From: Lineus longissimus
Taxonomy: Eukaryota; Nemertea; Pilidiophora; Heteronemertea; Lineidae
Direction: 5' to 3'
NCBI RefSeq assembly: GCF_910592395.1
Contig: NC_088309.1
Location: 16,434,599-16,498,598 of the forward strand
DNA: 64,000 nucleotides
The notes under the pieces are model-generated. The model was not told the origin of the DNA. It searched no databases and worked only from the letters and a program-made list of their open reading frames with translations. Position 1 is the stretch's first letter. Every line of letters starts with the position of its first letter. Below, piece by piece: positions 12,140 to 52,277 of this stretch. The position numbers were made by a program, and so were the translations under genes.

Positions 12140-12213
12140 GCCGTGCTCCCTTACATGGAGCCGAGGAGCATGGCAAGGATAATGGGAGGGAATTTGTTGG
12201 CTCCAAGGAAAGG

Positions 12214-15200
12214 ATGTTTATCAACACCTACTTAAATGGTGTTCCTTCTTGTTTCTTGCTCGATTCTGGTGCCAGTTGTTCATTTTTGTCCTTGGCTGCT
12301 TATCATAGGATACCCAAGAAGTTTAGACCACCTCTCCAGAAGCACAGAGCTGATATTCTGATGGCTGATGGTGAATCACATCTTAATATATTTGGAAAAG
12401 TTGCCATGCCCGTGAGGATTCATAACACGAAGTTTACGTTCAACTTAACGGTAACAGACATGAAAGGTCTGGATGGAATCTGGGGAATGGACTTTTTGAA
12501 CCAGTTTAAATTCGATTTGAAGTTGAGCTCGGGTACTTATGCATTCCAAGGACAGGAATATCCGTTGATCTTTGAGCGCCACAGGATACTACCCCATTCA
12601 GTTAGATTGGCTAAACCTCTGAAACTGCCACCGGGAGAGGAGACAGCTACGATAGCGCTGTTAAACAGGCCATTTCGCAACCGGCAAGAGGTTATGTTGG
12701 AGCCGAGTGTGCATTTTGTGCAGAAATATGGTGTCCTACCAGCACGGTCCGTAACAATCCAGCAACGGAAACGTATCAACACTCCAGTTCAGCTATTCAA
12801 CCCGAATGATGAAGCACTTGTGATACCGGAAGGGACGGTTATAGGATATGAGTTTCCAGCAGATACTCTGAAGGCAACTAATGTTGAGCAAACGGCTTAT
12901 GTAGCTGGAACCTTATCGCCTAGTGAGAACCCTGCCGCTGACAATACGTCAACTGAACCATCATCTTTTGTTGACTTAGAGCAAGATATTCCCGACCATC
13001 TATTTCAACTCTACACTTCATCGTGTAACGGTCTACACGAGCAACAGAAACGACAGCTTGCACTCCTGCTTATGAAGTATTCATCTTCATTCTCAAGTTC
13101 CCCTACGGATATTGGGTTGACTGACCTTGCCAGTCATGAGATCAATACTGGTGATGCACAACCTATCCGACTTCCGTTACGTAGGCAGGGATATAGCCGG
13201 GAACAAGAAATTGAAAAGGCTGTGGATGATGGGTTGGGGCGTGGTGTAATGGAGGACTCTGCCAGTCCCTGGGCAAGCCCCCCTGTTATAGTGACGAAGA
13301 AGGATGGAACGGCCCGCTTCTGTGTGGATTTCCGGAAGTTGAACTCCGTCACTAAAGCAGACTCCTATCCACTCCCACGATTTGATGACTGTATTGATAC
13401 GCTGCATGGGAAGAAGTACTTCTGTACGTTAGATCTACAGTCGGGATATTGGCAGGTGCCACTGAAGTCTGTTGAGGATAAAGAGAAGACTGCTTTTCTC
13501 ACAAAAAAAGGACTATTCCATTTTACGGTTCTTCCTTTTGGTTTGTGTAACGCTCCCGCTACGTTTGAGCGACTTATGGAAAGGGTCCTTCGTGGTCTTC
13601 AGTGGGAACGGTGCCTATTGTATCTTGACGATGTCCTTGTGTTTGGTGCCACTTTTGAGGAAACAATTTCCAACTTGGACAAAGTCCTAGCGAGATTGCA
13701 GTCGTCTAATCTCAAGATCAAACCCAGCAAGTGTTCTTTACTCCAGCCTTCTGTACAGTATTTTGGTCATGTTATTTCGGGTCTTGGCATCCACCCGTTG
13801 AAGTCTAAGCTTGGGTCTATTCAGGCTTGGCCTTCTTTGTCCTCTGTTCCTTGTCATAAGTTACGCACTGAGGTGAAGCGTTTTCTTGGTTTGGTAAGTT
13901 ATTACCGCAGGTTTATTCGGAACATGAGTGACATTTCTGCGCCACTCTATGAGCTCACTAAGGCATCTAGTAATCTGATTTGGACTCCAGCCCATGAGGC
14001 CTCATTTCAACGTCTAAAGGCAGCACTTCTACACCCGCCTGTTCTTGCCTTCCCTGATGTGAAAGCTGGTAACTTTGTGCTTGACACGGATGCGTCAAAT
14101 ACTGGTATTGGAAGTGTTTTGAGCCAGGTCTTGGACGGAAAAGAAACTGTAATCGGCTACTATTCACGATTGCTATCTGATGCAGAGAGAAAATATTGTA
14201 TTACTAAGAGGGAATTTTTAGGTGTTGTTCGGTCTGTTGAGCATTTCAAGCCCTACTTGTATGGACATCAGTTTCTCTTGCGGACGGACAACTCAGCCGT
14301 TAGTCATATGCTGACTCTTAGTGATGCTAATGAACAGATACAGAGATGGCAGTTGTTTCTCTCACAGTTTAAGTTTTCGACCATCCACCGCCCGGGAAGA
14401 CACCATGTGAATGCTGATTTCATGAGCCGACTCCAGTGTGACCAATGCGGCCGACAAGAAGTGCCAGAGCCAAATCGACCTACAGGGCATATTCGCAAGT
14501 TCCACCTTAAAGAATCCACAGATGTACCATCTTGTACTCACACCAAGCAAACAGATGACAGCTTAGAAGAGGAAGTTGACAAGTTGATGCTAAGTTGCGG
14601 TGCAGTCACGACTCGTGCACAGGCAAAGAGACTTCAAGATGTACCCAAGACAAATAACTCTCCCACCACCGATGAATCAACTTCGGTTAAGCTACCCTAT
14701 GATGATCTTGCCAACCTGCAACTATCTGATCCAGATATTGGTCCCATCTTACAATTGAAGCTTGACGATTCTGATTACCCTTCCTACAAAAGTATCTCTG
14801 GAGAAAGTCTCAGTGTGAAGACCTTGCGGCAACACTGGAGGCATCTCTTTGTGGATAATGGCATCTTGTATAGGAGGTTGGTAGTTCCGGACAAGCCGAT
14901 GAAACACCAAATAGTCCTCCCTAGGACTCTTCGCCATAGCGTCATGGACCAATTGCACTCTGAGCCAACATCTGGTCATCTAGGGATGGTTAAGTCAATG
15001 GAGCGTGTGAAGCATCGTTTTTACTGGGTTGGATGGAGACGGGACGTTTCTCGCTTTGTTTCATACTGTGAGGCCTGTAATGTCATCAAACGCCCACACA
15101 AGAAGATACCAGTCCCTTTGACACAGCAGCTTTTCGGTGAGGCATTTGAGAGAGTGTCCATAGACCTGATCGGCCCTCTCAAGGAAACTTCAAGAGGGTA

Positions 15201-16020
15201 TAGATACGCGGTGACGATGGAAGATAACTTCACTAAGTGGGTGGAGGCTGCTCCATTGCGGACGATGGAGACCGAGGAAGTCTGTCAGGCTGTAATAAAG
15301 GAATTTGTATCAAGGTTCGGATGCATGTATATATTACATAGTGATCGAGGAGCCCAATTTGTTTCTAAAATCTATTCCTGTCTCCTAGAGAAGCTTGGTG
15401 TTTCCCGTAGCCTCACGACGCCGTACAACCCCAAGAGCAATGGGCTTGTTGAAAACTTTAATAAGATTTTAAAGAGCATGCTGAAGACGTATGTTTATGA
15501 CCATAAGGAAAGTACAGGACAATGGGATGTCATGTTGCCAATCTTTCTTATGGCGTACAGGTCATCAGTACATGGTAGTACCGGAGAGACTCCCCACTTC
15601 ATGCTAACTGGACGGGAGATGAAGGTGCCGATAGACCTGCTGTACACGAAGCCGTCTGAAGACATGACGTCTGTTCCAACCTACGTCAGGCAGCTAGAAG
15701 ATAGGCTCAACAAGGCATATGCTCTAGTAAGGAATAATCTGAAATCGGTTCAGCGGATTCAGAAGAAAAGATACGAGACCAATAGTCCTGAGTATAGATC
15801 ACTGAAGGAGGGCAACTTTGTGTGGTACTATAACCCGAGAAAGGCGTTTAAAGGAGATAAGCACCTACCATGGAAGGGACCCTATTTGGTTAAAGATATC
15901 CAGGAGGATTTCACTGTGACCATACAGTTGAATCCAGAGGGAGAATTGTACAGGACTCATGCCGACAAGTTGCGAATAGCACGGGGTGTTGACATGGGAA
16001 AGTGGATGTGCAATAGTTAG
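12214..16020 (+). CDS. pol: Pol polyprotein (protease, RT, RNase H, integrase), first Gypsy element
   Basis: 1268 codons from ATG 12214, but the frame is open back to the gag stop, so translation probably enters by frameshift near 12127. Aspartic protease: DSGAS at 17-21. Reverse transcriptase: LDLQSGYWQV and the catalytic YLDD at 470-473. RNase H: Asp624 in LDTDASNTGIG. Integrase: an HHCC zinc domain around 915-960, then the triad Asp984 (SIDLIG), Asp1044 (HSDRGAQF) and Glu1080 (SNGLVENFN), with 35 residues between the last two as expected. There are no internal stops. Domain order is Ty3/Gypsy. Closely related in sequence to the element at 45651-53420. Confidence 0.95.
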   Translation: MFINTYLNGVPSCFLLDSGASCSFLSLAAYHRIPKKFRPPLQKHRADILMADGESHLNIFGKVAMPVRIHNTKFTFNLTVTDMKGLDGIWGMDFLNQFKFDLKLSSGTYAFQGQEYPLIFERHRILPHSVRLAKPLKLPPGEETATIALLNRPFRNRQEVMLEPSVHFVQKYGVLPARSVTIQQRKRINTPVQLFNPNDEALVIPEGTVIGYEFPADTLKATNVEQTAYVAGTLSPSENPAADNTSTEPSSFVDLEQDIPDHLFQLYTSSCNGLHEQQKRQLALLLMKYSSSFSSSPTDIGLTDLASHEINTGDAQPIRLPLRRQGYSREQEIEKAVDDGLGRGVMEDSASPWASPPVIVTKKDGTARFCVDFRKLNSVTKADSYPLPRFDDCIDTLHGKKYFCTLDLQSGYWQVPLKSVEDKEKTAFLTKKGLFHFTVLPFGLCNAPATFERLMERVLRGLQWERCLLYLDDVLVFGATFEETISNLDKVLARLQSSNLKIKPSKCSLLQPSVQYFGHVISGLGIHPLKSKLGSIQAWPSLSSVPCHKLRTEVKRFLGLVSYYRRFIRNMSDISAPLYELTKASSNLIWTPAHEASFQRLKAALLHPPVLAFPDVKAGNFVLDTDASNTGIGSVLSQVLDGKETVIGYYSRLLSDAERKYCITKREFLGVVRSVEHFKPYLYGHQFLLRTDNSAVSHMLTLSDANEQIQRWQLFLSQFKFSTIHRPGRHHVNADFMSRLQCDQCGRQEVPEPNRPTGHIRKFHLKESTDVPSCTHTKQTDDSLEEEVDKLMLSCGAVTTRAQAKRLQDVPKTNNSPTTDESTSVKLPYDDLANLQLSDPDIGPILQLKLDDSDYPSYKSISGESLSVKTLRQHWRHLFVDNGILYRRLVVPDKPMKHQIVLPRTLRHSVMDQLHSEPTSGHLGMVKSMERVKHRFYWVGWRRDVSRFVSYCEACNVIKRPHKKIPVPLTQQLFGEAFERVSIDLIGPLKETSRGYRYAVTMEDNFTKWVEAAPLRTMETEEVCQAVIKEFVSRFGCMYILHSDRGAQFVSKIYSCLLEKLGVSRSLTTPYNPKSNGLVENFNKILKSMLKTYVYDHKESTGQWDVMLPIFLMAYRSSVHGSTGETPHFMLTGREMKVPIDLLYTKPSEDMTSVPTYVRQLEDRLNKAYALVRNNLKSVQRIQKKRYETNSPEYRSLKEGNFVWYYNPRKAFKGDKHLPWKGPYLVKDIQEDFTVTIQLNPEGELYRTHADKLRIARGVDMGKWMCNS

Positions 16021-23653: not shown

Positions 23654-23951
23654 TGTGGTGCGGAGGGGTAGCGAGCGCGTCGCCAACAGCCGGTATCCCG
23701 TGACGTCAGCAGGTGGAGGGCCCAGTGACGTCACTCCCGGACCGCATAAAAGCCCTCGCAGGCCTAGTCTCGGGGCAGAAAACAACAGAAGTCTATAAAG
23801 TAAGTTTATCCCGTATCTTGTCCGGTTTCGTGCACATTTCATGCATAATGCACCGTATCATGCTCGCACCTGAATATTTGTGGTAGTGCACACCTGAATC
23901 AGCCCGTGGGTCACCCCGTCCGGCCCCTCGCTAAAAGTGGCCGGCACTACA
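23654..23951 (+). repeat. 5' LTR of the TatD-bearing Gypsy element
   Basis: Holds two perfect CRE palindromes TGACGTCA (23701-23708, 23726-23733), then a TATA-like CATAAAAG (23745-23752). These look like the promoter. A consensus splice donor AAA/GTAAGT lies at 23800. Confidence 0.93.
23800..23805 (+). promoter_or_regulatory. Splice donor in the LTR leader
   Basis: GTAAGT after AAA, about 48 bases downstream of the TATA-like box. It could splice to the acceptor at 32404-32405 to give a subgenomic message for the TatD gene. Confidence 0.5.
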
Positions 23952-23970
23952 ATTGGCGACGAGGATTTCT
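23952..23970 (+). promoter_or_regulatory. Primer-binding site, TatD-bearing Gypsy element
   Basis: ATTGGCGACGAGGATTTC starts at the LTR boundary; TGGCGACGAGGAT is a familiar Gypsy-type primer site form. The tRNA is not assigned. Confidence 0.6.
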
Positions 23971-24338
23971 TAGTTCGAACCCACTGCGGCTGTAGTTTTG
24001 CGATGGTGCAAGTCAGTGCACTGTGCTGACAACTTCGGGCGAATGTATTTTTGCCTTAGTAAATATATTTAGCTCAGACATGTTGGGTGTGGCAATTAGT
24101 ATCTCTCGTATCTGAAGTTTTGTAAAAGTTTGCGACTAATATTTCACTTGCACATTTTGAATTTGTTGGTTTATTCCGCACTGTATTTTTGTACCGAGCA
24201 CCGGCGACGTATACCCGCATATTCAGTCGTATCAGTTTCATTAGTCAGATTGTGAATTATTATTGTGTGCCACACCCGTCTAGGCCTTTGAATTATTTCT
24301 CTCTCGTCTAGTGAATACCTAGGCCCGGTTCTTAGGAA

Positions 24339-26167
24339 TTGATTGATTTCTCTTCTCCATCAAAGGACCAGAGTGTTCGTCCAAAGGGACGGAATATCAC
24401 TTGGGGGAACCCTCCTCCTGCCAATGTCGAGGAATTAGGCCGTACTGTAGGCCTATTAGCTCCTAATGGGAGTTATTCTCTTAGGCCCACTGCGCGAGCT
24501 CCGCCAGGTTTTGATGCGCGACCGCAGGTTGTAAGCACGCCATCGCACGATCGAAGAGACTGGTCTGAATTCGACTTATCGGACGGTTTGGAACCGATTA
24601 TATCACGTGGGCCACCCACGTCACAGTATCATGGTAATCCCATGTTGCGTTCTTCGGTCCAATCTCCGGACGGCAATGAGCTGGGGAGGCGGCTGGAGGA
24701 CGTTGGGATCCCGTCATTGTCTAAGTATTATCCACCTCATGTACCACAACGTCCTTGTCCTAATCCAAATGTTCAACAAGGAACATATCACCAGAGAAGT
24801 GCTAGTACTGGATACCCAATACCTCCCCTGAATTACATTTCAGGTCAGCACGGACAGGTGTTGAGTCGTGCCCCATTTCCACCATTTCAGGTTCCTCCCT
24901 ATTTGAGTGCAGGTCCCTGTCCAGGCTTGACTGCGACACCACGTCTCCCAAATCATTTTCAGGACAATAGACAGCCGGAATATAATCCTCAATATTCCCA
25001 ATATTCTCCGTTTACAGCTGTGGTTCCACCTCAACCCGGTGTCCAAGTACGTCCATTTACTCCTGCTCCTCAACATCTATCTGCCCATTTTCAGTCACCC
25101 GAGGTACGACGAGAGGATGTTCATCGATATGATTCTACTTCCATGATGCCCCCCCGTTTCCCATTTTCAGATCCTGGGCTGCAACATCATGCAATTCCGG
25201 AACAGATGGATCACTCCAGGGACGACTCACGTCATTCTCATTTCCGTCCATACAATCCACCCCCAGCCCGCTCCCTATTTTCGATGGTGGTGGCCAGTGG
25301 TCAACCTTTGATTTACAGATGCAGAGGGCGGCTACCAAGTATAGGTGGTCGGAGGTGGAGAAATTAGATCGTCTCATTGACGCTCTTCGGGGGAGGGCAC
25401 TCGAGTTTGTGGCGGAGTTGCCTCATTATTACCAGAACGATTACAATCAAATTTATATGAAACTACGTTCCCGTTTCGGGAGGACCGAGCCTCCGGTTTC
25501 GTATCGCCGTCGTCTGGCTGAGCTTGAACAATATGAAAACGAATCGTTGGCGGAGTTCGCGGAGCGCGCGCAACGTCTTGCGTCCCGTGGTTTTTCCTCT
25601 GCGGAGCCCGCGATTATTGATGAGTTGGCGGTGGAGGCCTTCTTCCGAGGCTGCCGGGAAAAGAATGCCGTCATTTTTGCTATGGACAAATGTCCTCTGA
25701 ACATTGATCACGCCCTCAAATTAGTCCAGTCAAATCTGGATAATCAAAAAGCTATTTGGGGCCGTACAAAACAGTCAAAATTTTATAGTCGTACTACTCT
25801 TCCTGTAAGTGATGGTCCAAGCATACGTGCTGTCTCTGCTGGTGGTCTGGAGGGACGTGTTGGAGTTCTGGAGACCGATGTCTCTGTCCTCCGCTCAACC
25901 GTCGAGGCGACACGAGAGGATGTCTCTACTATAAAAAACACTGTGTCCTCGACGGGTGAGAAGGTGGACAGGGCACTCCGTTCGCTTGACGGTCGGCAGC
26001 GCTCCCGTTTCCGATCCTCCAGTCCACGGCGGGGCTGTTCAAATTGCTTTTCAATGGATCACTTCTTCAGAGTCTGCCCGGATGTGTCATGTTACTTCTG
26101 TAAAGAAAAGGGGCACATCAAGGAGAACTGTCTTAAATTGTCTCCGTCACCGTCCCCAAATGCTTAG
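24339..26167 (+). pseudogene. gag: Gag polyprotein with one frame break, TatD-bearing Gypsy element
   Basis: The first frame (24339-25367) is a proline/tyrosine-rich N-terminus of about 310 residues. The second (open from about 25265, ending 26167) continues with FDGGGQWSTFDLQMQRAAT, the capsid core (KLDRLIDALRGRALEFVAEL to DHALKLVQSNLDNQ), a coiled segment (SVLRSTVEATREDVSTIKNT) and two CX2CX4HX4C knuckles (CSNCFSMDHFFRVC, CYFCKEKGHIKENC). The join needs a one-base frame change near 25260-25290, which could be a mutation or a frameshift. Two knuckles distinguish it from the single-knuckle Gag of the SGNH elements. Confidence 0.85.
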
Positions 26168-26175
26168 GGACTGAA

Positions 26176-29100
26176 ATGTATGGCCAACATTCAGTCCCTA
26201 CCATCGTAAGGCCAACTTTGAGTCATGTTTCTCCCACCATACGGCAATTAGCTGAGTCTCATTCGTGGGACTCGGACAGTCGTATGGTTCAGGTTCCTTC
26301 ATCTGGATCTGTAAGTGAAGATAGTCTCGGTCGCAAATTGTTGGAAAGTCAGTCAGGTTATGTGTGCAAGTCGTCACCTTTTCGGGTCGTGTATGACGAA
26401 CTACCCGACGTTGCACCGGAGACTGAGTGGACTAGTGAGTTAGCAGAAGAGCTTTTTCTTGCTGGGACACCAGCCTCTGGCCTACCCCCTGGTGGTTCGG
26501 TCTACAGCGACTTTGGGGATTACGATTTTGTTATGTCTCGGAGGTCGTCCCAAGCGAATTGGAGTGGTGACATTGTAGCCCCAGATAGTTACATTTACTC
26601 TGAAGGTTGTGGCTTGGCTGTCCCAAGTAATCCGTCTCCTGTAGAGTCCAGTTTGCCGGTCGGTTGTGACTTTGTCCCTCCAAATGTATCCGGGATGTCC
26701 CATGATAGTGTCTGTCGGGTTGTGTCTCGGCCTGTTGAAGGTTATGACATTGTCCCCTCGGAGGACTCTCAGGGGACGTCTCGTGTTGGAGGTGGTGAAG
26801 TGCTTCCCCTTGCTGACTATGACGGGATGCCCCGTTCTGTTAGAGGTTGTGACAATGACCTTTCAGGTCTTTGTCAATCTGTGCTGTTCCAATCCTTTGA
26901 TCCTGGTAAGAGATGGTTGTCACCTGCCCCTGATTCTTCTCCGGACGAGTTAGAGCTGGGGAGGGAGGGGGGAGGGGTGGTTTCATCATCTAATCCCGTT
27001 TCGGTTATCTCTCATTTTGACCTCGGGTCACCACCAGCCCCTGATCCTTCTCCGGACAATTTAGAGCTGGGGAAGGGGGGAGGAGGCGTGGTGTCATCAT
27101 CAAATTCAGTCCCACTCATCTGCCCTTTCAATCCTATATTGTCACTTGGTTGCTCAACCAACACTGGAGACATTGGCTGTATCCGGGAAGTAGATTTTAT
27201 GGGTGTGGGCGTAGTGGGGGAGAGTGCCGTGGTCCTGGCTTCAATACAGGGAATGGTGGCTGAAGCGACAATAGACAGTGCTGCTCAGGTTACCGTATTG
27301 AGTACAGACTACGTGCGTTCACTCCCTGTCGCTCTCATTTCTAAAGAATCCGTAAAACTTAAAGGTGCAGCCAAGGATAGTGACATTATTGCTTCGTATG
27401 TGGAGGGGGTGGAGTTCAGGATTAGTGATCAGGTGTTCTTGGTAAACGCGTACATTGCTCCGATATCAGATCCCATTCTGTTGGGGTTGGATTTTCTCAA
27501 GGCACAAAAGGCTGTTATTGACCTTCACCTTGAGAATCTAATCTTGAATGATATCCCAATTCCGATTAAGCTGGTACCCAATGTTCCACCGGTTTCCGAA
27601 CCCAATGTACGCAACATCCGTATGGACTCATCCTCCCACGTTGTTGGGAACTTGGATGAGAAGTCTGATGTGTTGTCTTCGGGACTTAGAACTCCCATTG
27701 ATCTCTCTCCGAGTTGTGAGTCTCTTCCTCCCGATCCGGATCCCAAGGCTCCTGTTCCTGAGTATTTAATGGATCTATATCTCCGTTCCATAGTACACCT
27801 TACGGACGAGCAAGCAGTGAAAGTTGCTGATCTCCTGAATGAATTCCAAGATGTCTTCTCAAAAGACGAATTCGATATTGGAACTTTTTCGGGGGTGCAG
27901 CACCATATAGACACTGGTGATGCTGAGCCCATTAAGGTCCCGACTAGACGAACTCCTGTTGCTTTTGATGATGAGGAGAGGCAGAATCTCACTTTGATGT
28001 TGAAGGCCACTGTCATTGAGCCTGCCTCATCTCCCTGGTCTGCGGCCCCGGTGTTGATCCATAAAAAAGACGGCAAGGTCCGCTGGTGTTGTGATTGGAG
28101 GGGTCTGAACTCTGTTACAAAAAAAGATGCATACCCTGTCCCAAACATTGAACAATGTTACCACACACTGAAGGGGTGCAAGTACTTCAGCACCCTAGAT
28201 GCTACTTCCTCGTATTGGCAAATTGAGATTGCCCCCATTGATCGAGAAAAAACTGCATTTTCGTCTAGCAAATACGGTCTCTTTCAATTCCGGAAAATGG
28301 GGTTCGGACTTTGCAATGCTCCCGCGACGTATCAACGTGTGATGGAGCATATTCTCTCTGATCTGTTGTGGGACAAACTGGTTTGTTACTTGGATGACGT
28401 CATTATGGGAGAATTGACTTTTGAAGACCACCTGGTACTCCTCCGTAAGTCACTTCTCAGGTTCCGTGAACACAAACTCAAGTTGAAACCTCGAAAATGC
28501 AACCTCTTTCAACTAGCGGCTAAGGTTTTGGGTCACATTCTCGATGAGCGCGGGATTGCAGTCAATCTCGAGAACATCGAGAAAGTAAAGTCATGGGCCC
28601 CACCTAGGTGTCTCCGAGAGTTGCAATCTTTCCTCAGCTTCGCTAATTACCACATATCTCACATCAAGGGTTTTTCGGAGATTGTGGTTTCACTCACCGA
28701 ATTACTCAGTAAATCAGTCTCATTTCAGTGGGGAACAGAGCAGCAGTCTGCTTTCGTACGGTTACGGGAGGCCCTGTCATCTGCTCCGGTGTTAAGTTAT
28801 CCCAACGATTCTGACCCCTTCATTCTAGATTGCGATGCTTCTGATCGCACCATAGGAGGGGAACTCCTACAGGTTCAGAATGGAGAGGAAAGAGTCATTG
28901 CATATGGGAGTTACACCATGACACCGGAGCAACGGCGTTACTGTACCACCCGTAAGGAGTTGTTGGCGTTGGTAAGATTTACCCGGAAATTCCGGCACTT
29001 CCTTCTCGAGAAGAAATTCACGGCCAGAACAGATCATGGCAGTTTGGCTTGGCTTATGCGATTTAAGCATATTGAGGGCCAGTTGGCTCGTTGGTTGGAA

Positions 29101-30264
29101 GAGCTAAGCTGCTATGATCTCCAAATTATTCATCGTCCGGGTAAATTACATGCCGACGCTGACGCTCTGTCTCGACTCCCTGATTTGCTCCCCGCTTGTG
29201 ATTGTTATAGGGCGGGTATCTCCTTAGACAGTCTTCCTTGTGGTGGTTGTGCTTACTGTACCAGGGCGCACAATCAGTGGGCACGCTTCGAGGAGGAGGT
29301 GGATGATGTTTTGCCTTTGGGAATTAGGATTGTTTCATTAAATTCCTCAGACAACTCTCCTGAGGACCCTATGTTGAACCCCATGTGTAATCCTTTTCTT
29401 AGTGTCTTACAAGATCAAGATTTGGACTCAGAGTTGAGTTGGAATGGTGAGGAGCTGGATTTTATTCCGGACATTGTCACTTCGGGTACTGGTCGTGTAG
29501 ACGTACTGCCTTGTTTGTTTGAAGAGCTGGATCATTCAGATTCATTGGTTGAGTTGTGCGACGGGGCTGGGACGGTAGGGGTTGGTTCTGTTTTTGACCC
29601 TGTTTCCCCCCCGGACGTATCTGAGCTGGAGGGGGAGCAGGATCTGATAGAGCCGGTGTGCCCCTGGTCCCCTTCTTCCCCCTCGGGCAATTCTGGTTGT
29701 TCAGATGTTCCCGATCTTTCAGAATATTGCTCTCCTGTGAATTGGACGGATAGTTTCACACGTGATGAACTAGAGGCGTCTCAGACTCAAGACCCAGATT
29801 TGGGAAAAATCATTGGTTGGCTTAAGGAAGGTGTGGTGCCGTCCAAGTCCATGCTACAGTCATGTGGGCCTGTGGTTAGGCATCTTTGGTTATGTCATAC
29901 TCAACTGGTATTGGAGGATGGCCTCCTTTGGTATCAGTGGGATGATGTTGTTAATTCCCGTTTGCTTCTTATGGTTCCCTCATCTCTCAAAGAACGTGTC
30001 TTTGGTATAGTTCACGATAACATCACATCCGGCCATCTGGGGTACAAAAATACTCTTTCTCGTCTCAGACAATCATTTTATTGGCGAGGTATGGGTCAAG
30101 ATTGTTATGCATATGTGGCCTCGTGTTCCATATGCAGTATCAATAAGAAACCCTGCCGTAAAATGAAAGCCGCTCTTGTGCCATTTACGGCTTCTGTTCC
30201 GATGGAAAGGGTCCATCTGGTCCGTTTATTCCGAGTTCTAATGACAATCTTTACATTCTCATGA
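26176..30264 (+). pseudogene. pol: Pol polyprotein up to integrase, TatD-bearing Gypsy element
   Basis: 1362 codons. An N-terminal ~340-residue acidic, Ser/Pro-rich extension contains two copies of a ~45-residue unit (PAPDSSPDELELG and PAPDPSPDNLELG). Protease: DSAAQ with Asp367. RT: LDATSSYWQIEI and YLDD at 738-741. RNase H: Asp885 in LDCDASDRTIGG. A second acidic insert of ~190 residues with a CDCYRA...CGGCAYC cluster lies between RNase H and the integrase HHCC domain. The frame ends at 30264 because a small deletion just after ERVHL removes the stretch holding the first integrase catalytic Asp and shifts frame; the rest continues at 30261. Confidence 0.85.
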
Positions 30265-31483
30265 TTATAGATCAGTTTACCCGTTGGATTGAGTGCTTTC
30301 CACTCCCCACTCAAGGAGCTGAGCAAATTGCTCGGACGTTCGTCTATGAGTTTGTCGCACGTATGGGTTGTCCGTTGGAGATACACACAGATCAGGGCCC
30401 TAACTTTGTTTCAAAGTTATTCGGAGCTGTCTGTCGTCTCCTTCAGATAGCAAAAACCCGCACTACGCCTTATCATCCTTCGTCTAATGGTCAGGTTGAG
30501 CGATATAATCGCACTCTTCTTCAATTAATTCGTTGTTTCCTGGGAGACGACCAGCGGGATTGGGACAATGATTTACCCCTTCTCGCTGGTGTTATCCGCT
30601 CTATGCCGAATCGGAGTACTGGTTTCACCCCCAACATGCTTATGTTGGGAAGAGAGGTTCACATGCCCTCCGACCTGGTCCTCAGCCCATTCCTAAAACA
30701 ACCTCCCGCAGCATCGGCCGGCGAATACGTACTGAAGCTGCGGGAGAAACTTGAGTTTGTACATCGTATCGCTCGGCAGCACTTGGGTGTAGCCGAGCAC
30801 CGTAGAAAAAAGGACTATGATGTGCAACTCCGGGAAAAGAAGTATTAGGCCGGGGATATCGTGTACAAGTCTGACACTGCGTCCAAGGTTGGGCAAAGCT
30901 CCAAACTTAGGCAATCTCACCGGTTTTATATCTCATCGACGGGCAGAGTAAGAACCAAGTCGTTCATCATGATCGGCTTAAGCTCTGTCGAGATCGGATC
31001 TTGCCGTTCTGGCTTCGGAGAAAGCGTTATCATCTCCTTGGTCCGGACGATTCAGTGATTGCTCCATGTACAGATTCCCCTGACATGGAAACTGGGGTGT
31101 TTCCCTTTTGTGCTCTGGATGAATTGGAGTTTGCGGATGTTGCCCAGGGTTCATTAGAGAATATTTCTCCTTCATTACTCTCAGTTTCTCCTCCGTCCGA
31201 TGATGCGCTGCCCGGACGATCTGTAGAGCTGGGCGGGGCTTCCCGGTTGGAGGAGACAACTTCTCACCATGAAGCCGAGTTGGACCTCAGTCTGTCTTCC
31301 TCCCCGTCAGTTAGTCTCCCTGAAATCAGTTTCTCTCAGGATATGCCCCCGATTCCAGGGTTACCACTCTGGGGGGTACGTAATGGGTACGACGAAACTG
31401 ACGAACCACCCTGGAGACTGTCTGATGGACGCGGTGGGAGAAGGCGGCGGTTGCCGGCTTATTTGGGAGATTATATTCTCTAG
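30261..31483 (+). pseudogene. Integrase remainder and Pol C-terminus, fragmented
   Basis: 30261-30848 encodes the integrase core after the deletion, with IHTDQGPNF (second Asp) and SSNGQVERYNR (Glu) intact, then the post-core helices. A TAG at 30846-30848 interrupts KKY/AGDIVYK. The tail jumps frames again around 30900-31000 (a VVHHDRLK-type segment) and ends in an acidic stretch open to 31483. With the first catalytic Asp gone this copy cannot integrate on its own. Confidence 0.8.
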
Positions 31484-32403
31484 ATTACATGAAACTAGGC
31501 ATTCCATAGTTGCGGGCTTGGGTTATTGTTTCCCTTTACCTTTCTGTGTTCAAACACTATCTTACGATACGTCCACTTCTCGTCTATCGGCGTATCGATT
31601 TCCACTATTTCAAGCTTCTTGAGACTTATTGTTGAATTCTGCCGGAATCAAATTGCCGAAGTTGAATTTCTCGTAGTCCGTCTTTTCCCCAATCGGTTAC
31701 TCCGTGTTAGTACTCTGTTCGTTTGTCTTGTTCTATGGGGGATTTTATATTTTTTATCCTGTCTGAAATTCAAATTGGTGATCTGTTCCTATTGTCGATC
31801 GTTGATACCTCATTTGTTTCAACATCGATTCAGTGTTGTCAAATTTTAAATTTACAGTTTCGTAGCAAGTTCCTGCTTTGCAATCTTGTCCGTGCCGAGC
31901 TGAGATGAATCTCGGACTAAGCACGATTTCCTTGCGGTAACAAAATAGGTTTGTTTGCAATTTCCATGTTAACTGGATCAGGCATGATTCAGCTGGTTTG
32001 ACCGGCTTCGTAAAATAATCTTTTTTTTTTTTTTTTGTGTAAAACCAAAGTCCACTAAAAATCTAAATCAAGCCATTTCTGCATTAAAGCTAAACCGTTC
32101 TTTATCAGGATGGTTCAATACCACATTGCGTCATCAGTGTGTTTACACTTCATAAAATCGGTCATTATTTCCTTGTTTCTGGTTACCGCATTACCGTCTC
32201 AATGGGGTTGAGTGGTGAATTACAGTTGCAGATAAGCAACCTTCATTTCGTTCTCATTTTTTTAGTTGAGTTCAGTTTGCCGTTTTGGTTCTAATTCTGG
32301 TTAAATTAAGACGGGAACCCCATTTTCGTTCTAGTTATTTTCTGTTCTCAAATATATTCGATTCACCATCCGACCCTATTGGTAAAACGGTTTCTTTCGT
32401 TTC
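31484..32403 (+). other. Spacer between pol and the TatD gene
   Basis: No convincing frame. It is T-rich, with a T16 run at about 32021-32036. It ends in a polypyrimidine tract and splice acceptor. Confidence 0.4.
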
Positions 32404-32405
32404 AG
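32404..32405 (+). promoter_or_regulatory. Splice acceptor before the TatD gene
   Basis: GGTTTCTTTCGTTTCAG is a strong acceptor 6 bases before the ATG at 32412. With the LTR donor at 23800 it would give an env-like spliced message. Confidence 0.55.
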
Positions 32406-32411
32406 GCAATT

Positions 32412-33475
32412 ATGTCACCAACTAAGGTTCAGTGTCCGGTTTGTCCAGCCAAGGCTGGACATGTCAAGCGCCATGTTGTACGAACGCGGGGTATGTCCGG
32501 GTCCGTCTGACACCATCTGGTCGGACCACGAGATTTTATTCGTTCGGGAACTGCGTCTGGCGGAGTGGCTCCCCCCAACCTGGGACCTCTCCGTCGGATT
32601 CAGTCTAGCGCACTTATGGCATTGGAGGACGGCGTGTCGGGTCTTGTCGCTGTTCCCGGAGGCCCTTCGGGCCTCGTTCTATCTACCTCCTTTAATAGCG
32701 CCAAGACTCGCCCCGCCGCTCTTCGATGCGCACTTCCATCTGGACCGTCTACCTGGTGGGGTGGGGATGGCTATCGATCCCCTGGTTACCAGGGCGGTCG
32801 CTAGCTATTGCTTCCCCTCCTCCTGGCCTCGCGCGGGTGGTCCTGGGGTCTCGGATGGCAGGGTCTCTTTTGCTGTGGAACTCCATCCCAGGATCGCCCA
32901 TAATATTTGCGCGACAAATTTTGGTACCAGATTGCAGGCAGAGGTGGCGCTTCTTGGACCGAGGGTGGTGGCCATCGGTGAGGTGGGGTTGGATTACGTT
33001 TGTAATCCAACGCCTCAGGTTCGGGAGGCACAGTTCAGGATTTTCCGGGTTTGTGTGGGGGTGGCTAAGGACCGGGGCCTTCCCCTTGTTTTACACTGTA
33101 GGGGTAACAAGTTGTCCCCGGACTCCGCCGGCCTTGACTGCCTGGACTATCTGAAGACTGTCCTCCCCTCCTCCCACCGCATCTATCTCCACTGCTTTAC
33201 CGGGGGTTGGGAGGTTGCCCTTCAATGGCTGTCCGCTTTTCCTGCGACTGTCTTTGGCGTGACCATCGTTCGAAATTTGCTGGGGGTGCGGCGAACTCGC
33301 CCTGCAGCGTTTGGAACTGACTTCACTGGTGGTGGAGACGGATTCCCCCTACCTCCTTCCTAGCCCTGGCAAAATTACCGAAGTGGTAGAGTATCTGGCC
33401 GGGATTGTGGGCGAGTCTAGGAGGACCGTCGCTAAAGCCACCAGCGAGGCGGCTCTACGGTTCTATTCGCTGTAG
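32412..33475 (+). pseudogene. Zinc-finger plus TatD-family nuclease gene carried by the Gypsy element
   Basis: An ATG at 32412 opens 32 codons with a short C2H2 finger (CPVCPAKAGHVKRH). The frame then changes within about 32455-32510 into the 300-codon frame 32461-33363. Numbering from 32461, TatD metal ligands appear in order: HxH in FDAHFHLD (His91, His93), Glu174 in AIGEVGLDY, His212 in LVLHCRG and His244 in YLHCFTGGW. The last ligand lies in ETDSPYL, in another frame at about 33345-33365, reached by a second frame change near 33260-33320; that frame runs to TAG at 33473. Family: metal-dependent 3'-5' exonuclease/endonuclease of the amidohydrolase fold. The ligand set is complete although the frame is broken twice. 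Its place between pol and the 3' LTR is where env normally lies. Confidence 0.8.
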
Positions 33476-33649
33476 ACCTGCATTTTCGAGCGAGCAGGCC
33501 AGGCTTTGTGCAATTTTCCAGGTAGGTCTGGCCTGTCCCGTCGTCCAGTATTTCTCTTTCCGAGGAACGACCAGTGTTGTCATTTTTTAAATTTATTCCG
33601 GTTCATTCCTGGGGAGGGTTTTACACTCAGTTCACTTATACGGGTTTGG

Positions 33650-34001
33650 CCTCTTCGGACAATCAAAGGCTGAGGAGGCCCTAGTTTTTTTTTACTAAAA
33701 TCAAGTTGTCTTGGTAACGGGGTGTCCTAATTTAGTATGCTCCTCGGACTTTGTGAGCTGAGGGGTCCTTAAGGACATTCCAGTTTCCTTTATGTATCTA
33801 TTAACTTGTCTTTGGAACGGGGTGTCCTAATTTAGCATGCTCCTCGGACTTTGTGAGCTGAGGGGTCCTTAAGGACATTCCTACTTCCCTCCGTGTATAT
33901 AGTTATTATAATCATGATCTAAAGTGCCCTTGGAACTGAGTGTCCCATCGTAGCACGCTCCTCGGACTTTGTGAGCTGAGGGGTCCTTCTGGGCATTCAC
34001 A
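33650..34001 (+). repeat. Three tandem hairpin-forming repeats in the Gypsy 3' region
   Basis: Units at about 33705-33781, 33806-33881 and 33927-34000 share GCTCCTCGGACTTTGTGAGC then TGAGGGGTCCTT. Each can fold: an inner CTCCTC/GAGGGG stem and an outer stem TGTCCT/AGGACA in units 1 and 2. In unit 3 the outer arms read TGTCCC and GGGCA, so pairing is kept by matched changes. A related CTCTTCGG...GGCTGAGGAGG pair occurs at 33650-33680 and 34100-34130. Confidence 0.65.
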
Positions 34002-34221
34002 GTCCAAGTTTTGTATAAAATACTATAAAGTCTAGTTTTTTCATACATATTATAGGCCCGAGTGGGGTTAAGTTTTTTTTTGGTAAAAAAGCCGGCGTGT
34101 CTCTTCGGATATAAAAAGGCTGAGGAGGCTCGTGCAGGGAATTACATTGTACAGTACATCGACAAGATCATGCAGCTCCCAGAAGACGGTGACCACCATC
34201 ATCATCCCAAATCCCGAGACG

Positions 34222-34237
34222 ACCTAAGGGGGAGGAA
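34222..34237 (+). promoter_or_regulatory. Polypurine tract, TatD-bearing Gypsy element
   Basis: TAAGGGGGAGGAA ends directly at the 3' LTR. Confidence 0.75.
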
Positions 34238-34535
34238 TGTGGTGCGGAGGGGTATCGAGCCCGTCGCCAACAGCCGGTATCCCGTGACGTCAGCAGGTGG
34301 AGGGCCCAGTGACGTCACTCCCGGACCGCATAAAAGCCCTCGCAGGCCTAGTCTCGGGGCAGAAAACAACAGAAGTCTACAAAGTAAGTTTATCCCGTAT
34401 CTTGTCCGGTTTCGTGCACATTTCATGCATAATGCACCGTATCATGCTCGCACCTGAATATTTGTGGTAGTGCACACCTGAATCAGCCCGTGGGTCACCC
34501 CGTCCGGCCCCTCGCTAAAAGTGGCCGGCACTACA
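34238..34535 (+). repeat. 3' LTR of the TatD-bearing Gypsy element
   Basis: 298 bp, three differences from the 5' copy by eye; both CRE palindromes and the CATAAAAG box are kept. Followed by GGAC. Confidence 0.93.
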
Positions 34536-46951: not shown

Positions 46952-49900
46952 CTATTGTGGGCGTGGCCACTCCAAATTTACTCCTCGTGCGATGCGCAGC
47001 TTGTCCGCATGTGTCCTCATGGTCCTACCAGCCTCATCACATTGCAGTAGCACTGTAAAATTCTCGTTCATTTCCAAGACCAAATACGGCCCAAGCCATG
47101 GACGGTGCCGATCTCCCTTGAATGACTTCCTAGGATTGAAGTAGTATACAGCATCTCCAGCTTTCAGCGACTGGTACGTTGGAAGAGATGTTTCCCACTG
47201 CTTCTTTTGTACCCGTTGCGTGGTCTTGAAATGGTTCCTAACAAACATGAAAGCCTTATGGAACTTGGCCTCCAGGTTAGTAACGTAAGCAGGTACATCG
47301 GTTACATCCTCGGAAGGAGTGGTGTAGAGAAGGTCAAGTGGCAACTTCATCTCCCTTGCTGTCAATAGGAAGTGGGGGGTTTCGCCTGTGCTTGAATGAA
47401 TGGATGATCGGTACGCCATCAGGAAAATAGGTAACATTAAATCCCAACTGCCGACGCTTTCCTTGTGATCATGAATGTATGTCTTCATCATATTCTTTAG
47501 GGTCTTGTTAAAATTTTCGATAAGCCCGTTACTTTTAGGATTGTACGCTGTGGTCAGTGTTTTGTCGACTCCTAACTTCTTCATCAGGGCAGTATACAGG
47601 CTCGAAACAAACTGGGCGCCGCGGTCGCTATGGATGATGTACATACACCCGAATCTTGATACTAAATCCTTGATTATGGCATTACAGACTTCCTCTGTTT
47701 CCATAGTGCGAAGGGGTGTGGCCTCCACCCACTTCGTGAAGTTGTCCTCCATAGTGATAACGTATTGGTATCCTCGGTCCGTAACTCTCAATGGCCCAAT
47801 CAAATCAATGCTTACCCTCTCGAACGCTTCGCCAAACAACTGCTGAGTAAGAGGTTGTCGTATCTTCTTATGGGGATGTTTAACCATGTTACAAGTGTAA
47901 CAGTAGGAAACAAAGCGCATAGTGTCCCTACGCCATCCGACCCAATAGAATCTCGATTTTACGCGTTGCAGAGTTTTCGGTGTTCCCAAATGTCCGGCAG
48001 TAGGATCACAATGAAGCTTTTCCAAAACTTGCTGACGCAGAGCTCGTGGTAGCACTATCTGTACCCGAAGGTCCTTATCCTTCACTTCCAGTCTCCGACA
48101 TAGAATCCCATCACGTACAAAAGATTCCTCCAGTGTTGCCTTAAGGCTTTGACACTGATACTTTCTGCTGAAATGGCTCTATATGTGGGGTAGCCCGACC
48201 CACTGATCTTTATTTGAAGAATCGGAGCAATATCAGGGTCACTACGTTGTAGATTAGCTAGTTCACTCAAGAAATTTGGATTTGTCAATTCCGTTGTTGA
48301 TTCAGGTATGTCCTCTGTCTCTCTTTCCTCTGCTTCCTTTTCTTCCTCCTTCTTTGTCCGTGAACGTGTCATTATGGCGTTACAAGATATCATAAGGTCA
48401 TCAATCTTTTGTTCAAGATTGTCATCTGTGTCACGTGTATGCTCGCAATGTGGCACTTCTGCTGGTGGTACTACGCGTCTGTAGTGTCTTGGCTTTCCAG
48501 GACGATCCGACGATTTAGCCTGTCTGCATTGGCGTCCACACTGCAAACAGGGCATCCTACTCATGGCATCAGCGTTGCCATGCAGGCGTCCGGCACGATG
48601 AACCAAGTCGAATTTGAATGATGACATAAACAATTGCCAACGTTGGATTTGCTCATTAGCATCCGTGAGAGTAAGTAGGTGGCTAACTGCACTATTGTCC
48701 GTTCTAATCAAGAAATGCTGTCCGTAAAGATAAGGTTTGAAGTGTTCAATTGCACGAATCACCGCCAGAAATTCACGCTTCGAAATGCAGTAATTTCTTT
48801 CTGAGTCCGACAGTAATCTGGAGTAGAATCCGATGACATGCTCACATCCCTTTTGAACCTGACTAAGCACTCAACCCATTCCCATGTTCGAGGCATCCGT
48901 GTCCAAGATGAATCCTCCACCTTTCACGTCAGGATAGGATAGAACCGGTGCCGACGTCAGTGCAGCCTTAAGTCGAACAAAAGCTTGCTCACATTCGGCA
49001 GTCCAAACCAAACCACTGGAACTCTTGGTAAGCGCATACAAGGGGGCAGCGATGTCACTCATGTTTCGGATGAAACGTCTGTAGTAAGACACGAGACCTA
49101 AGAAACGTTTCACTTCGGTTTTGAGGTCCTTCTTCGGCACAGTGGACAACGACGGCCATTCCTTCACTGCTTCAATTTTGCTCTTCAGTGGAGCGATTCC
49201 TTTCCGTGAAATTACATGTCCAAGATATTCCAATGATGATTGCATTAGTATGCACTTGCTGGGCTTTATCTTCAAGTTAGCCTTCTGCAGTCTCGCCAGT
49301 GCCGCTTTCAAGTTGTTGAGGGTTTCATCGAATGTCCGACCGTATACTAAAATATCGTCCAAGTAGAGAAGACACTTTTCCCATTGTAAGTGACGAAGTA
49401 CATTCTCCATCAACCGTTCAAAAGTTGAAGGGGCGTTACATAGCCCGAAAGTCAGAACCGTGAACTGGAAAGATCCTTGTTTCGTCAAAAATGCACTCTT
49501 TTCCCTGTCACTCTGGGTGGCCAAAGGTACCTGCCAGTACCCCGACTGTAAATCTAGTGAACAAAACAGTGTGCTCCAATGTAATGAATCCACACAGTCA
49601 TCGAACTTTGGTAGGGGGTAGTTATCGACCTTTGTCACTGAGTTCAAGCGCCGAAAATCAATGCAGAACCTACTAGTTCCATCCTTTTTGCCAACGATGA
49701 CAGGGGCACTTGCCCATGGACTACTTGACTCCTCCATGATTCCCCTTGCAAGTCCATCCTTTACAGCTTCCTTGATTATTTGTTCCTTTTTGAATCCTTG
49801 GCGTCTAAGAGGGAGTCGAAACGGTTTAGCTTCACCCGTATTAATCTCATGTCCCACAAGTGATGTCTTGCCAATATCTGATGGTGACTTGGAAAAAGTG

Positions 49901-50781
49901 TCCTGAAATTCGATCAGCAACGATGCAAGTTTTATCCTCTGAGGCACATCCAGGTCCGTACTCGATTTATGATAAAGTTCTGACAGATGCTGTGGCATAT
50001 TATCCTCGAGTTTCTCCAGAAACTCGTCATCATTTGTGATGGGACTTTCATTGCTCGCATGAAAGATCTGTTCGGACTCGACTTCCGTATCCTCAGATAC
50101 ACAACCTGGAAATGCATATCCCACTACGCTGTCCTTGGGAATTACAATTTCCTCATCCGTTGCATTGAATAATTGAACAACTGTAGATCGCCTCTTCCTC
50201 CCCTGGGTCGTTAATGATCGTGCTGGAAGTACTCCACTCTTCTGGATAAAGTACACACTGGGTTCAAATGACACATCCTCCTTGGAACGAAAAGGTCTGT
50301 TCAAACACGCCTTGGTGATCAGTTCGGACCCAGGTGCTATCTTTGTCTCATATTGTAGCCTCACAGAATGGGGAAGAATGCTATGCTTTTGAGTTATCAT
50401 GGGATATTCCGTCCCATTGAATACGAAAGTTTCAGTACTCATCTTAAAGTCACATCTAAATTCAGCAAGAAAATCCATTCCCCATATTCCGTCCATGCTA
50501 TCCATGTTTGCTACCGTCATCTCGAATTCAAACCTAGTATTATACACTCGCACTGGCATCCTCACTGTTCCGAGTATACCCAGTTTCGATGCTCCATCGG
50601 CCATGGTTATGACATCTCCAGAAGGTAGTAGTGGCGGCCTATGCTTCTTCGGTATCTTGAAGTATGCCTTCGAGGACAAGAACGTCGACTGTGACCCAGA
50701 ATCAATCAAAAAACATGTTGGCAGTCCGTTCAAATAGGTCGTCAAATATGACCTCGATGGAGCTCTATTGGTTGCATTCAC
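46952..50781 (-). pseudogene. pol: Pol polyprotein with one stop and one frameshift, third Gypsy element
   Basis: 48871-50781: protease (LIDSGSQSTFLS), RT (LDLQSGYWQV, YLDDILVYG) and the start of RNase H (LDTDASNMGMG), then TGA at 48871-48873. 48082-48870 continues in the same frame with the RNase H remainder and linker (FLIRTDNSAVSHLL). A one-base slip near 48117 moves the rest to 46952-48085, which holds integrase with VSIDLIG, HSDRGAQF and SNGLIENFN, all three catalytic residues kept. Domain by domain it parallels the Pol at 12214-16020. Confidence 0.9.
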
Positions 50782-50822
50782 GTATTGGCCGTGCCCCGCC
50801 GCTGCCTCAGGGAAGGCACGGC

Positions 50823-52277
50823 CTACTGGTTTTCCGGGTCCTCAGTATTCTGGCCGGTGGCGGTAAAGTGCTGAACACCAACAGGACAATCTCTCCAGAA
50901 GTCGTCAGGTGAATGGCAAATAAAACACAACCTATCTGCCTGCTGTAACCTCCTATCTTCTTGATTATACCGTCCACGTCCATAGCCTCTTCCCCTACCA
51001 AAACCACGGACTCGTCCACGGCCTCTCTGAAAAGGGTTGCGCTGCCCCTGGGTGTTCTCTGATGATGGCTCTGGGGTGTTGAGAGCTGCCACCTCCTCCC
51101 TGCCATAGATGGGCTGATTCACTGCCAGAAGGTGAGCCTCGTAACTCTTCGCTAGCTGGAGCACATCCGCCAATGGACGATCCTTATGTTCAAATAATTT
51201 GTCACCCAGTGGTCCCTGACGCAATGCAAGATAAAGCTGTAAGCCTAAGTCGGGTTGAAGGCGTCCGTAAGCTCGCTTGCTGTACAAAGAGAAGCAAAAT
51301 GACAGTTGTTCCAGTGTTTCTCCGTGCTCCCTCTTGACATCTCTGAGTTTGGCCACCAATTCGGATTTCTCACCAATGTAATGCTTCTCTAACTTGGCCA
51401 CCAGTTTCTCAAACGTTACAGTCTCTCCAGCTAGATCCAGCGCTGCCAAAACCTTCGCTGCTGGTCCCGTCAACTTCTCTCTCAGTAACGCAAGTTTTCC
51501 CACAGATGACCACCCTGTGGTCATGGCGTTGAAATTGGCCAGGTAAGATTCAATATCAATTTCCTCCTCCTTGAATGGGGCCATCTTGGGCTGCCTTCTA
51601 TTCACTACCGCAGATTGCAAAGGATCGCCAAATGAACAGTTTGTGAAGTGATTTACTACTGATGCACTGACACCACTTGTTTCCGTACTGTGGGTAGGCA
51701 ACAATCCTGCCACATCAGTACTATTGTCACTCATCACTACCTCCGGCCTGGTACTGTGGACAGGCAACAATCCAGTCACATCAGTACCCATGTCAACGAA
51801 TGTCACTCCCGTTGCACTGCTGCTGGCTGGCTCACTTGACTCTTGTCCTACTGGTGGTGCACTTAATTCCGGGGCTGGTGGTGATAGGCTCCCCATCAGG
51901 ATGGGACTGGTAGTAGGCATCCTAATCCCACGCCTCTCAGCAGGGGGTCCCATGGGAGTTTGGACTACTTGTGTTGACGTCGCCGGCGCACTGTCTGCCT
52001 GGATCCATCTCTCTTCCATCGATAGGTTTTCATAAGACGTCACACACCCAGTAATCGAAAGACTATATCGAATGCTTTTTCGGCAGTGAAGTCTGACAGA
52101 ATTCAGAAATCCCAATGTTCCCCATGGTCCTTCATAGGTAATGGTGGGAGCATTAGGGGTGTTGCCAGGGGAATCTGTCCTAGCCTGTCTCCGTTCCACA
52201 GGTACATCACCCGGCCGTCCTCTACCCCTTAGCTCCATTCCTTCTTCTACTCTCCGATCCTCACCTCCGTCGGCCAT
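50823..52277 (-). CDS. gag: Gag polyprotein, third Gypsy element
   Basis: 484 codons, ATG 52277. Same plan as the Gag at 10613-12139: proline-rich N-terminus, capsid core (KEEEIDIESYLANFNAM to AKSYEAHLLAVNQ), an RGRGYGRG-rich stretch, and a C-terminal knuckle. The knuckle reads CFICHSPDDFWRDC, with Asp where CCHC knuckles have His. pol is in the -1 frame and open back through the gag stop. The heptamer here (GGAAAAC) is weaker than UUUAAAC. Confidence 0.9.
   Translation of the reverse strand: MADGGEDRRVEEGMELRGRGRPGDVPVERRQARTDSPGNTPNAPTITYEGPWGTLGFLNSVRLHCRKSIRYSLSITGCVTSYENLSMEERWIQADSAPATSTQVVQTPMGPPAERRGIRMPTTSPILMGSLSPPAPELSAPPVGQESSEPASSSATGVTFVDMGTDVTGLLPVHSTRPEVVMSDNSTDVAGLLPTHSTETSGVSASVVNHFTNCSFGDPLQSAVVNRRQPKMAPFKEEEIDIESYLANFNAMTTGWSSVGKLALLREKLTGPAAKVLAALDLAGETVTFEKLVAKLEKHYIGEKSELVAKLRDVKREHGETLEQLSFCFSLYSKRAYGRLQPDLGLQLYLALRQGPLGDKLFEHKDRPLADVLQLAKSYEAHLLAVNQPIYGREEVAALNTPEPSSENTQGQRNPFQRGRGRVRGFGRGRGYGRGRYNQEDRRLQQADRLCFICHSPDDFWRDCPVGVQHFTATGQNTEDPENQ

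What the first reader, a model, noticed from the sequence alone, without database searches (positions are those of the whole stretch)
32404..33475. Zinc-finger/TatD nuclease in the env position of a Gypsy element, behind a splice acceptor
All five TatD metal-ligand blocks are recognisable in order, preceded by a small C2H2 finger. A strong acceptor sits 6 bases before the ATG, and the LTR leader holds a consensus GTAAGT donor. That is the layout used for env subgenomic messages, but with a DNase. I do not know of a described role for TatD in LTR elements; it could trim cDNA ends or attack competing DNA.
Basis: partly seen in the sequence, partly recalled or inferred. Interest (0 to 1): 0.87.

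Follow-up and report, generated by a model that had tools for sequence, protein, structure and literature searches.

The report
Retrotransposon lineage carrying zinc-finger TatD nuclease
Several families of Gypsy-type jumping genes in one animal genome carry, after their replication genes and behind a splice site, a gene for a zinc-finger nuclease of the TatD family, which suggests that these elements bring their own nucleic-acid-cutting enzyme along.

Summary
The observed parts are real, but in this copy finger and TatD pieces lie in three frames, so the window copy is broken. The gene is no accident. The window holds a complete 10.9-kb Gypsy insertion (LTRs differ at 3/298 bases; target duplication GGAC). 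In the same genome at least five element families carry a C2H2 finger, a helical stretch and a TatD nuclease after pol (for one, B, no LTR was found). In all five a strong 3' splice site ends 0-6 nt before the TatD start; the four with a 5' LTR in hand each have a strong 5' splice site in it. All five TatD motifs recur in every family. The proteins form a clade with 12 database relatives, apart from the host's TATDN2-like gene. Five window-family copies have lost TatD (four by one deletion); three of them have the longest uninterrupted pol frames and near-identical LTRs, so TatD is not needed in cis. One family also carries a ribonucleotide reductase small subunit behind its own acceptor. Best reading: an accessory nuclease from a spliced message acting on reverse-transcription intermediates. 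Splicing is inferred from sequence, activity is untested. My searches found no described TatD in LTR elements.

The parts
23654..34535 (+). Ty3/Gypsy-type LTR element, one insertion flanked by GGAC
   Evidence: LTR pair and 4-bp target duplication
23654..23951 (+). 5' LTR, 298 bp, TGTGG...CTACA
   Evidence: 26 places with this LTR in the genome
23800..23805 (+). splice donor GTAAGT in the LTR, after a TATA-like box at 23745
   Evidence: no ATG between 23771 and 23799
23953..23966 (+). likely primer-binding site, TTGGCGACGAGGAT, also seen in the family D leader
   Evidence: read from sequence; role recalled
25319..26167 (+). gag with zinc knuckle
   Evidence: PF03732 E 5.4e-6, PF00098 E 0.0068, below its cut-off
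26176..30264 (+). pol: protease, RT, RNase H, integrase zinc-binding part
   Evidence: Pfam matches; protease matches below their cut-offs
30261..30848 (+). integrase core in another frame (pol is broken in this copy)
   Evidence: PF00665 E 1.1e-11; one frame in TatD-less copies
31001..31483 (+). tail of pol in a further frame
   Evidence: inferred: the pol frame of the TatD-less copies runs on past the integrase to about the matching place
31831..31854 (+). left direct repeat beside the TatD region (22 of 24 bases like 33572-33595)
31843..33693 (+). stretch absent from four TatD-less copies of the family (ends approximate)
32404..32405 (+). splice acceptor AG, 6 nt before the ATG
32412..32510 (+). 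C2H2-like finger piece (frame 1)
   Evidence: longer and in frame with the helical part in C15:3.11 and C10:11.08
32461..33363 (+). helical part and main TatD part (frame 2)
   Evidence: PF01026 E 6.8e-22
33320..33475 (+). TatD C-terminal part with the ETDSPY block (frame 3)
   Evidence: PF01026 E 9.6e-8
33572..33595 (+). right direct repeat beside the TatD region
   Evidence: right breakpoint region of the separate deletion in C10:12.84
33700..34006 (+). three hairpin repeats in the 3' untranslated part
34226..34237 (+). polypurine tract AAGGGGGAGGAA
   Evidence: read from sequence; role recalled
34238..34535 (+). 3' LTR

Best explanation
This is a Ty3/Gypsy element whose third gene, in the env position, encodes a protein with a C2H2 finger, a helical stretch and a TatD metal-dependent nuclease. 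The gene is shared by several element families and has been kept over long divergence. Shown from sequence: place after pol, recurrence in five families, kept catalytic motifs, splice-site layout. Inferred: the protein is made from a spliced mRNA that joins the LTR donor to the acceptor just before its ATG, while unspliced RNA serves as genome and gag-pol message. Inferred, about 0.4: the finger-guided nuclease acts on RNA:DNA or DNA intermediates of reverse transcription (clearing RNA from hybrids, trimming 3' ends or flaps). It helps but is not needed in cis, since recent copies without it have spread, perhaps with help from other copies.
For: Five families (A-E), about 24-30% alike in long alignments of this protein, carry it; target duplications enclose it in A, D and E. 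Acceptor 0-6 nt before the TatD ATG in 11 of 13 loci tried, the other two having no recognisable start; such a site precedes 0.04-0.54% of 2579 window ATGs. Donor inside the LTR in 4 of 4 families with a 5' LTR. The five motifs are kept in each family. In family A dN/dS of TatD is 0.35-0.59, like pol 0.27-0.55. By PF01026 alone, 6 of 13 RT places at least 50% like the window's have TatD within 15 kb, against 1 of 84 below that (Fisher p 1.1e-5). The fold model of a relative is a TatD barrel.
Against: No transcript or enzyme assay. Five family-A copies without TatD include the most open pol frames and the most similar LTRs. No A copy seen has both an open pol and an unbroken TatD with all motifs. 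In B, D and E dN/dS is 0.70-1.03 from few changes, so no sign of constraint among those copies. The TatD tree does not put A with B-E as one branch: database proteins of unknown context lie between. No LTR was found for B.
Confidence: 0.72

Rival explanations
1. Passenger: one element picked up a host TatD gene or pseudogene by chance and it has no role.
For: The window copy is broken; the gene is lost in five copies of the family; B, D and E show no constraint among copies.
Against: Five families share the architecture, motifs and splice layout; the proteins group apart from the host TATDN2-like gene (96/89 against 99/92).
Confidence: 0.06
2. The protein is an envelope substitute for entry into new cells.
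For: It sits in the env position with the spliced layout of env.
Against: No strongly hydrophobic stretch in the three window-genome proteins scanned (highest 19-residue mean 1.65; up to 1.95 in four outside relatives); the model is a TatD barrel.
Confidence: 0.02
3. The nuclease is offensive or defensive: it destroys DNA of competing elements, or host signals, rather than serving the element's own copying.
For: Same sequence facts; a cheater could drop such a gene and still profit, as the TatD-less copies may do.
Against: Nothing here separates it from the main reading; no target is known.
Confidence: 0.12
4. The protein works mainly at the RNA stage in the nucleus (hybrids at transcription sites, export of genome RNA), as CERV does for Cer1, with the nuclease secondary.
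For: Spliced Cer1 mRNA encodes CERV, needed for export of unspliced RNA (PMC10309623, abstract); TATDN2 acts on R-loops (PMC12709183, abstract and passages); B and C have NLS-like stretches.
Against: Catalytic motifs are kept, so a purely binding role is unlikely; TatD-less copies keep the hairpin repeats, so export may rest on RNA.
Confidence: 0.15

Closest known systems
ORF3 enzymes of bdelloid rotifer LTR retrotransposons (DEDDy exonuclease, GDSL esterase in Juno and Vesta; PMC5408684, abstract and passages)
   Same: A non-envelope enzyme, one type a nuclease, after pol; the authors state that ORF3s are expressed from spliced messages; related forms shared by unlike elements.
   Different: DEDDy or GDSL, not TatD (the word TatD does not occur in that paper); other host; here a finger and helical part precede the nuclease.
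Cer1 of C. elegans with spliced CERV (PMC10309623, abstract only)
   Same: LTR retrotransposon whose extra protein comes from a spliced message.
   Different: CERV is described as a novel protein for RNA export, not as a nuclease.
Host TATDN2 (PMC12709183, abstract and passages; P0041)
   Same: TatD nuclease of animals; nearest host branch in the tree.
   Different: Separate clade; the host gene at C7 is split by introns.
Orchid Ty3/Gypsy elements with an m6A demethylase domain (PMC9289625, search listing only)
   Same: Gypsy element that has fixed an extra enzyme domain.
   Different: Other enzyme and host.

Membership tests
Ty3/Gypsy LTR retrotransposon | Two LTRs with short target duplication | tested here: met
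   298-bp LTRs, GGAC
Ty3/Gypsy LTR retrotransposon | gag, then pol in the order protease-RT-RNase H-integrase | tested here: met
   (protease matches below cut-off)
Ty3/Gypsy LTR retrotransposon | RT groups with named reference Gypsy elements | not tested
   only elements of this genome were in the tree; Pfam does not split these groups
TatD nuclease family | PF01026 match over the curated cut-off | tested here: met
   78.5 and 32.2 bits against 27
TatD nuclease family | Five metal-ligand blocks | tested here: met
   all in order but over two frames in the window; all in one protein in B and C
TatD nuclease family | Barrel fold | tested here: met
   model of relative P0013, best match 6l25; the window protein itself was not modelled
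TatD nuclease family | Nuclease activity | not testable with these tools
   none
Host TATDN2 orthologue | Falls in the TATDN2 branch | tested here: not met
Env-bearing (retrovirus-like) Gypsy element | Third gene is a membrane glycoprotein | tested here: not met
   hydropathy of other family members and fold
Env-bearing (retrovirus-like) Gypsy element | Third gene expressed from a spliced message | tested here: inconclusive
   splice signals present, no transcripts seen
LTR elements with enzymatic ORF3 (bdelloid type) | Non-envelope enzyme gene after pol, recurring in several families | tested here: met
   B without an LTR found

The most novel reading that the evidence does not exclude
An undescribed lineage of animal Gypsy elements replicates with its own DNA-metabolism kit, each tool made from its own spliced message: a finger-guided TatD nuclease in every family, and in one family also a ribonucleotide reductase small subunit that raises dNTP supply. 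Such elements would depend less on the state of the host cell, and copies that drop the kit would live on helpers.
Probability: 0.4. Interest if true: 0.88.

Novelty: new variant of a known kind. Interest (0 to 1): 0.74.

Why it matters
Extra genes of LTR elements other than env are rarely followed over several families together with their expression signals. Here very different leader and acceptor sequences keep the same splice layout around one nuclease gene, so the central prediction can be tested with ordinary RNA-seq and the enzyme with one purified protein. It gives a way to ask which steps of reverse transcription need help, and why a selfish element would keep such help for long and then shed it. 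The ribonucleotide reductase in one family points to dNTP supply as a second need.

Tried and rejected
That the TatD-less copies are spliced retrocopies: rejected, the shared deletion does not have GT...AG ends. That the TatD-less state is ancestral: judged unlikely, since four other families have TatD. That TatD is a later nested insertion: rejected, several copies carry it at the same place. Family E pol from L034: dropped as evidence, because similarity between the two E copies does not reach it; that row is in the RT tree and should be ignored. Rfam for the 3' hairpins: one match far below its cut-off on the other strand, taken as chance. Family-A hairpin motif in B-E: none found. IMG/VR scans with A1, the window RT and P0013: no relatives. 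Selection in B, D and E: no signal. Five searches for TatD with mobile-element words (in 109, 25 of 27 papers listed) and one for TATDN2 with transposable element: no listed title or abstract start described TatD inside a retroelement; those papers were not opened. A general search for extra genes in LTR elements listed 20 of 37 papers. One for ribonucleotide reductase with LTR retrotransposon listed 15 of 28; no listed title described that gene inside an element.

Full report
WHAT IS THERE. The window holds a complete Ty3/Gypsy-type insertion, 23654-34535. Its 298-bp LTRs differ at 3 places and GGAC is duplicated on both sides. Inside are gag and pol with protease, RT, RNase H and integrase; pol is broken into pieces. 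After pol come a C2H2-like piece (32412), a TatD piece (PF01026, E 6.8e-22) and a C-terminal TatD piece (E 9.6e-8), in three frames.

OTHER COPIES IN THE SAME GENOME. The window's genome (391 Mb, 30 contigs) gave 27 PF01026 matches at 21 loci (a lower bound). I read DNA round each of the 21. Sorted by DNA likeness, neighbours and protein: family A, the window's own, 6 loci; B 3; C 1, plus one found later; D 2; E 2; F, a different repeat, 5; a TATDN2-like host gene with introns, 1; an unassigned remnant, 1. In C15:3.11 finger, helical part and TatD form one open frame, 436 codons from stop to stop (402 from the ATG), though one metal-ligand motif is altered. In B at C6:8.74 (498 codons from stop to stop, 455 from the ATG) and in C at C15:0.64 (481) the frame holds the finger, the helical part and all five motifs. 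Other copies read here are broken or cut short.

THEY ARE LTR ELEMENTS. TatD lies after gag/pol and before the 3' LTR. Target duplications are GGAC, GAAG and ATGG in three A copies, CCAG in D and AAGG in E. C has gag, pol and TatD and an LTR pair of about 92% identity, with an insertion in one LTR and no target duplication found. B has an integrase about 46-50% like the window's directly upstream, but no LTR was found. The D and E copies are internally deleted. The window's RT was scored at 97 places (1769 candidates). By PF01026 alone, 6 of 13 places at least 50% alike have TatD within 15 kb, against 1 of 84 below 50%, a D copy (Fisher p 1.1e-5). Reading the DNA after three of the 13 that had no such match added one truncated TatD (C15:1.86) and none in C1:10.41 and C10:8.25; the 84 were not read in this way. 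An RT tree puts A with C and D (97/97), apart from two other Gypsy elements of the window.

SPLICE SITES. A strong acceptor ends 6, 1, 0, 1 and 4 nt before the TatD ATG in A, B, C, D and E (11 of 13 loci; the other two, one D and one E, have no recognisable start). One A copy (C10:11.08) has a weaker site (3.56 against 5.06). The share of 2579 window ATGs with a site as good within 6 nt is 0.23, 0.04, 0.08, 0.08 and 0.54% (the window's own site is among those counted). In A, D and E the LTR plus leader (546-754 bp) holds exactly one donor over my threshold, inside the LTR; C likewise. As a rough control, 101 of 1274 blocks of 298 bp of the window hold a donor as good as the weakest of these; the stretches scanned were longer. 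The weights are approximate and recalled, not a trained splice model. No transcript was examined.

SELECTION AND ORIGIN. The five motifs recur in each family; the copy at C15:3.11 and relative P0035 depart. In A, dN/dS against the C15:3.11 copy is 0.41, 0.59, 0.35 and 0.42 (Fisher p 0.014, 0.077, 0.0017, 0.096; the four comparisons share one sequence), pol 0.27-0.55. In B, D and E the few changes give 0.70-1.03, no evidence of constraint among those copies. A tree of 30 TatD domains puts A-E and 12 database proteins in one clade (96/89), the host TATDN2-like gene, hyena TATDN2 and F in another (99/92), bacterial and archaeal proteins outside. Within the clade the element rows are not one branch: A sits beside P0040 (88/82), B-E beside P0001 (99/96). 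Of the 12, five have a C2H2 pattern by script and two more (P0012, P0036) by eye. Two are named, from scallops (Pecten, Argopecten). Whether any of the 12 sits in an LTR element is unknown. So the protein is old and not a recent capture of this host's gene.

LOSS OF TATD. Four A copies (C13:8.10, C3:1.96, C15:0.275, C2:14.77) share one deletion of about 1.85 kb that takes acceptor and gene; a fifth (C10:12.84) has another, ending in direct repeats (22 of 24 bases alike) that flank TatD. LTR differences: TatD-bearing copies 3/298, 7/298 and 2/299; TatD-less 1/299, 0/299, 0/287, 1/289 and, with only 81 bp left of one LTR, 1/81. The open pol frame round the RT is 1792, 1796 and 1530 codons in three TatD-less copies, 1793 with one stop in C10:12.84, and not listed for C2:14.77; in three TatD-bearing ones it is 1375, 569 and 531 with one stop. 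So the copies that look youngest and most open have no TatD: it is dispensable or supplied by other copies. Losing the acceptor would also leave more RNA unspliced (inference). Not every place with this LTR was examined: of 26 LTR matches those at C8, C16, C10:12.64, C13:16.65 and C15:11.91 were not read.

STRUCTURE. AlphaFold2 on relative P0013 (11-row alignment, mean pLDDT 78) gives a TatD barrel, helices before it and a finger region (mean pLDDT 84-89 for residues 61-100). Best solved match is a bacterial TatD (6l25, E 8e-15); TATDN3 and TATDN1 follow. In the viral library one giant-virus protein matches at E below 0.001.

HOW IT MOST LIKELY WORKS. Shown: gene order, recurrence, motifs, splice signals. 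From others: E. [quoted passage not shown] Inferred: unspliced RNA is genome and gag-pol message; a spliced RNA makes the finger-TatD protein; NLS-like stretches in B and C fit a nuclear place; the protein clears RNA from hybrids or trims DNA 3' ends or flaps. The substrate is a guess (about 0.4).

A SECOND ENZYME. In both C copies an intronless ribonucleotide reductase small-subunit gene (PF00268, E 2.1e-90 for a piece of one) lies between integrase and TatD; in C15:1.86 an acceptor scoring 6.8 ends 8 nt before its ATG. The two copies are 98% identical over 3.5 kb. The only other PF00268 gene found in the genome is split into exons; the element's protein is 68-88% identical to it, exon by exon. 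Each element copy is interrupted once, at different places. By its title, PMC3002893 (search listing only) reports that regulators of this enzyme inhibit Ty1 mobility, which fits a need for dNTPs.

NOVELTY. Enzymatic third genes in LTR elements are known (bdelloid DEDDy and GDSL, PMC5408684). A TatD one was not found in the searches named under Tried and rejected; the library holds open-licence papers only. I call it a new variant of a known kind.

Noticed in passing
L052:1410-2300 and L028 (minus strand, before its TatD): Ribonucleotide reductase small-subunit gene, intronless, inside both family C elements between integrase and TatD, with its own strong splice acceptor.
   Followed up: partly
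L001:1393-2280; L009:5722-8742; L012:766-3960; L022; L047: A second TatD-bearing repeat (F), at five loci and up to 97-99% alike: a Cys-rich CCCH-like start plus TatD near TATDN2 in the tree, beside a long ORF (1006 or 1064 codons) with no Pfam match. Perhaps a DNA transposon; ends not sought.
   Followed up: partly
33700-34006: Three hairpin repeats after TatD (z -3.1, -3.1, -1.3), present three times in seven of eight other family-A loci scanned and twice in L016, also in TatD-less copies: a candidate export or packaging RNA element.
   Followed up: partly
31831-31854 and 33572-33595: Imperfect direct repeats (22 of 24) flank the TatD region and may favour its loss; one TatD-less copy has its junction there.
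   Followed up: partly
10613-16020; 46952-52277; 56664-60812: Two other Gypsy elements without TatD, and what by eye looks like a tyrosine-recombinase (DIRS-like) element, in the same window.
   Followed up: no
L048:1054-1463: A broken TatD remnant among ORFs that by eye look like Helitron replicase/helicase; perhaps a sixth finger-TatD family.
   Followed up: no
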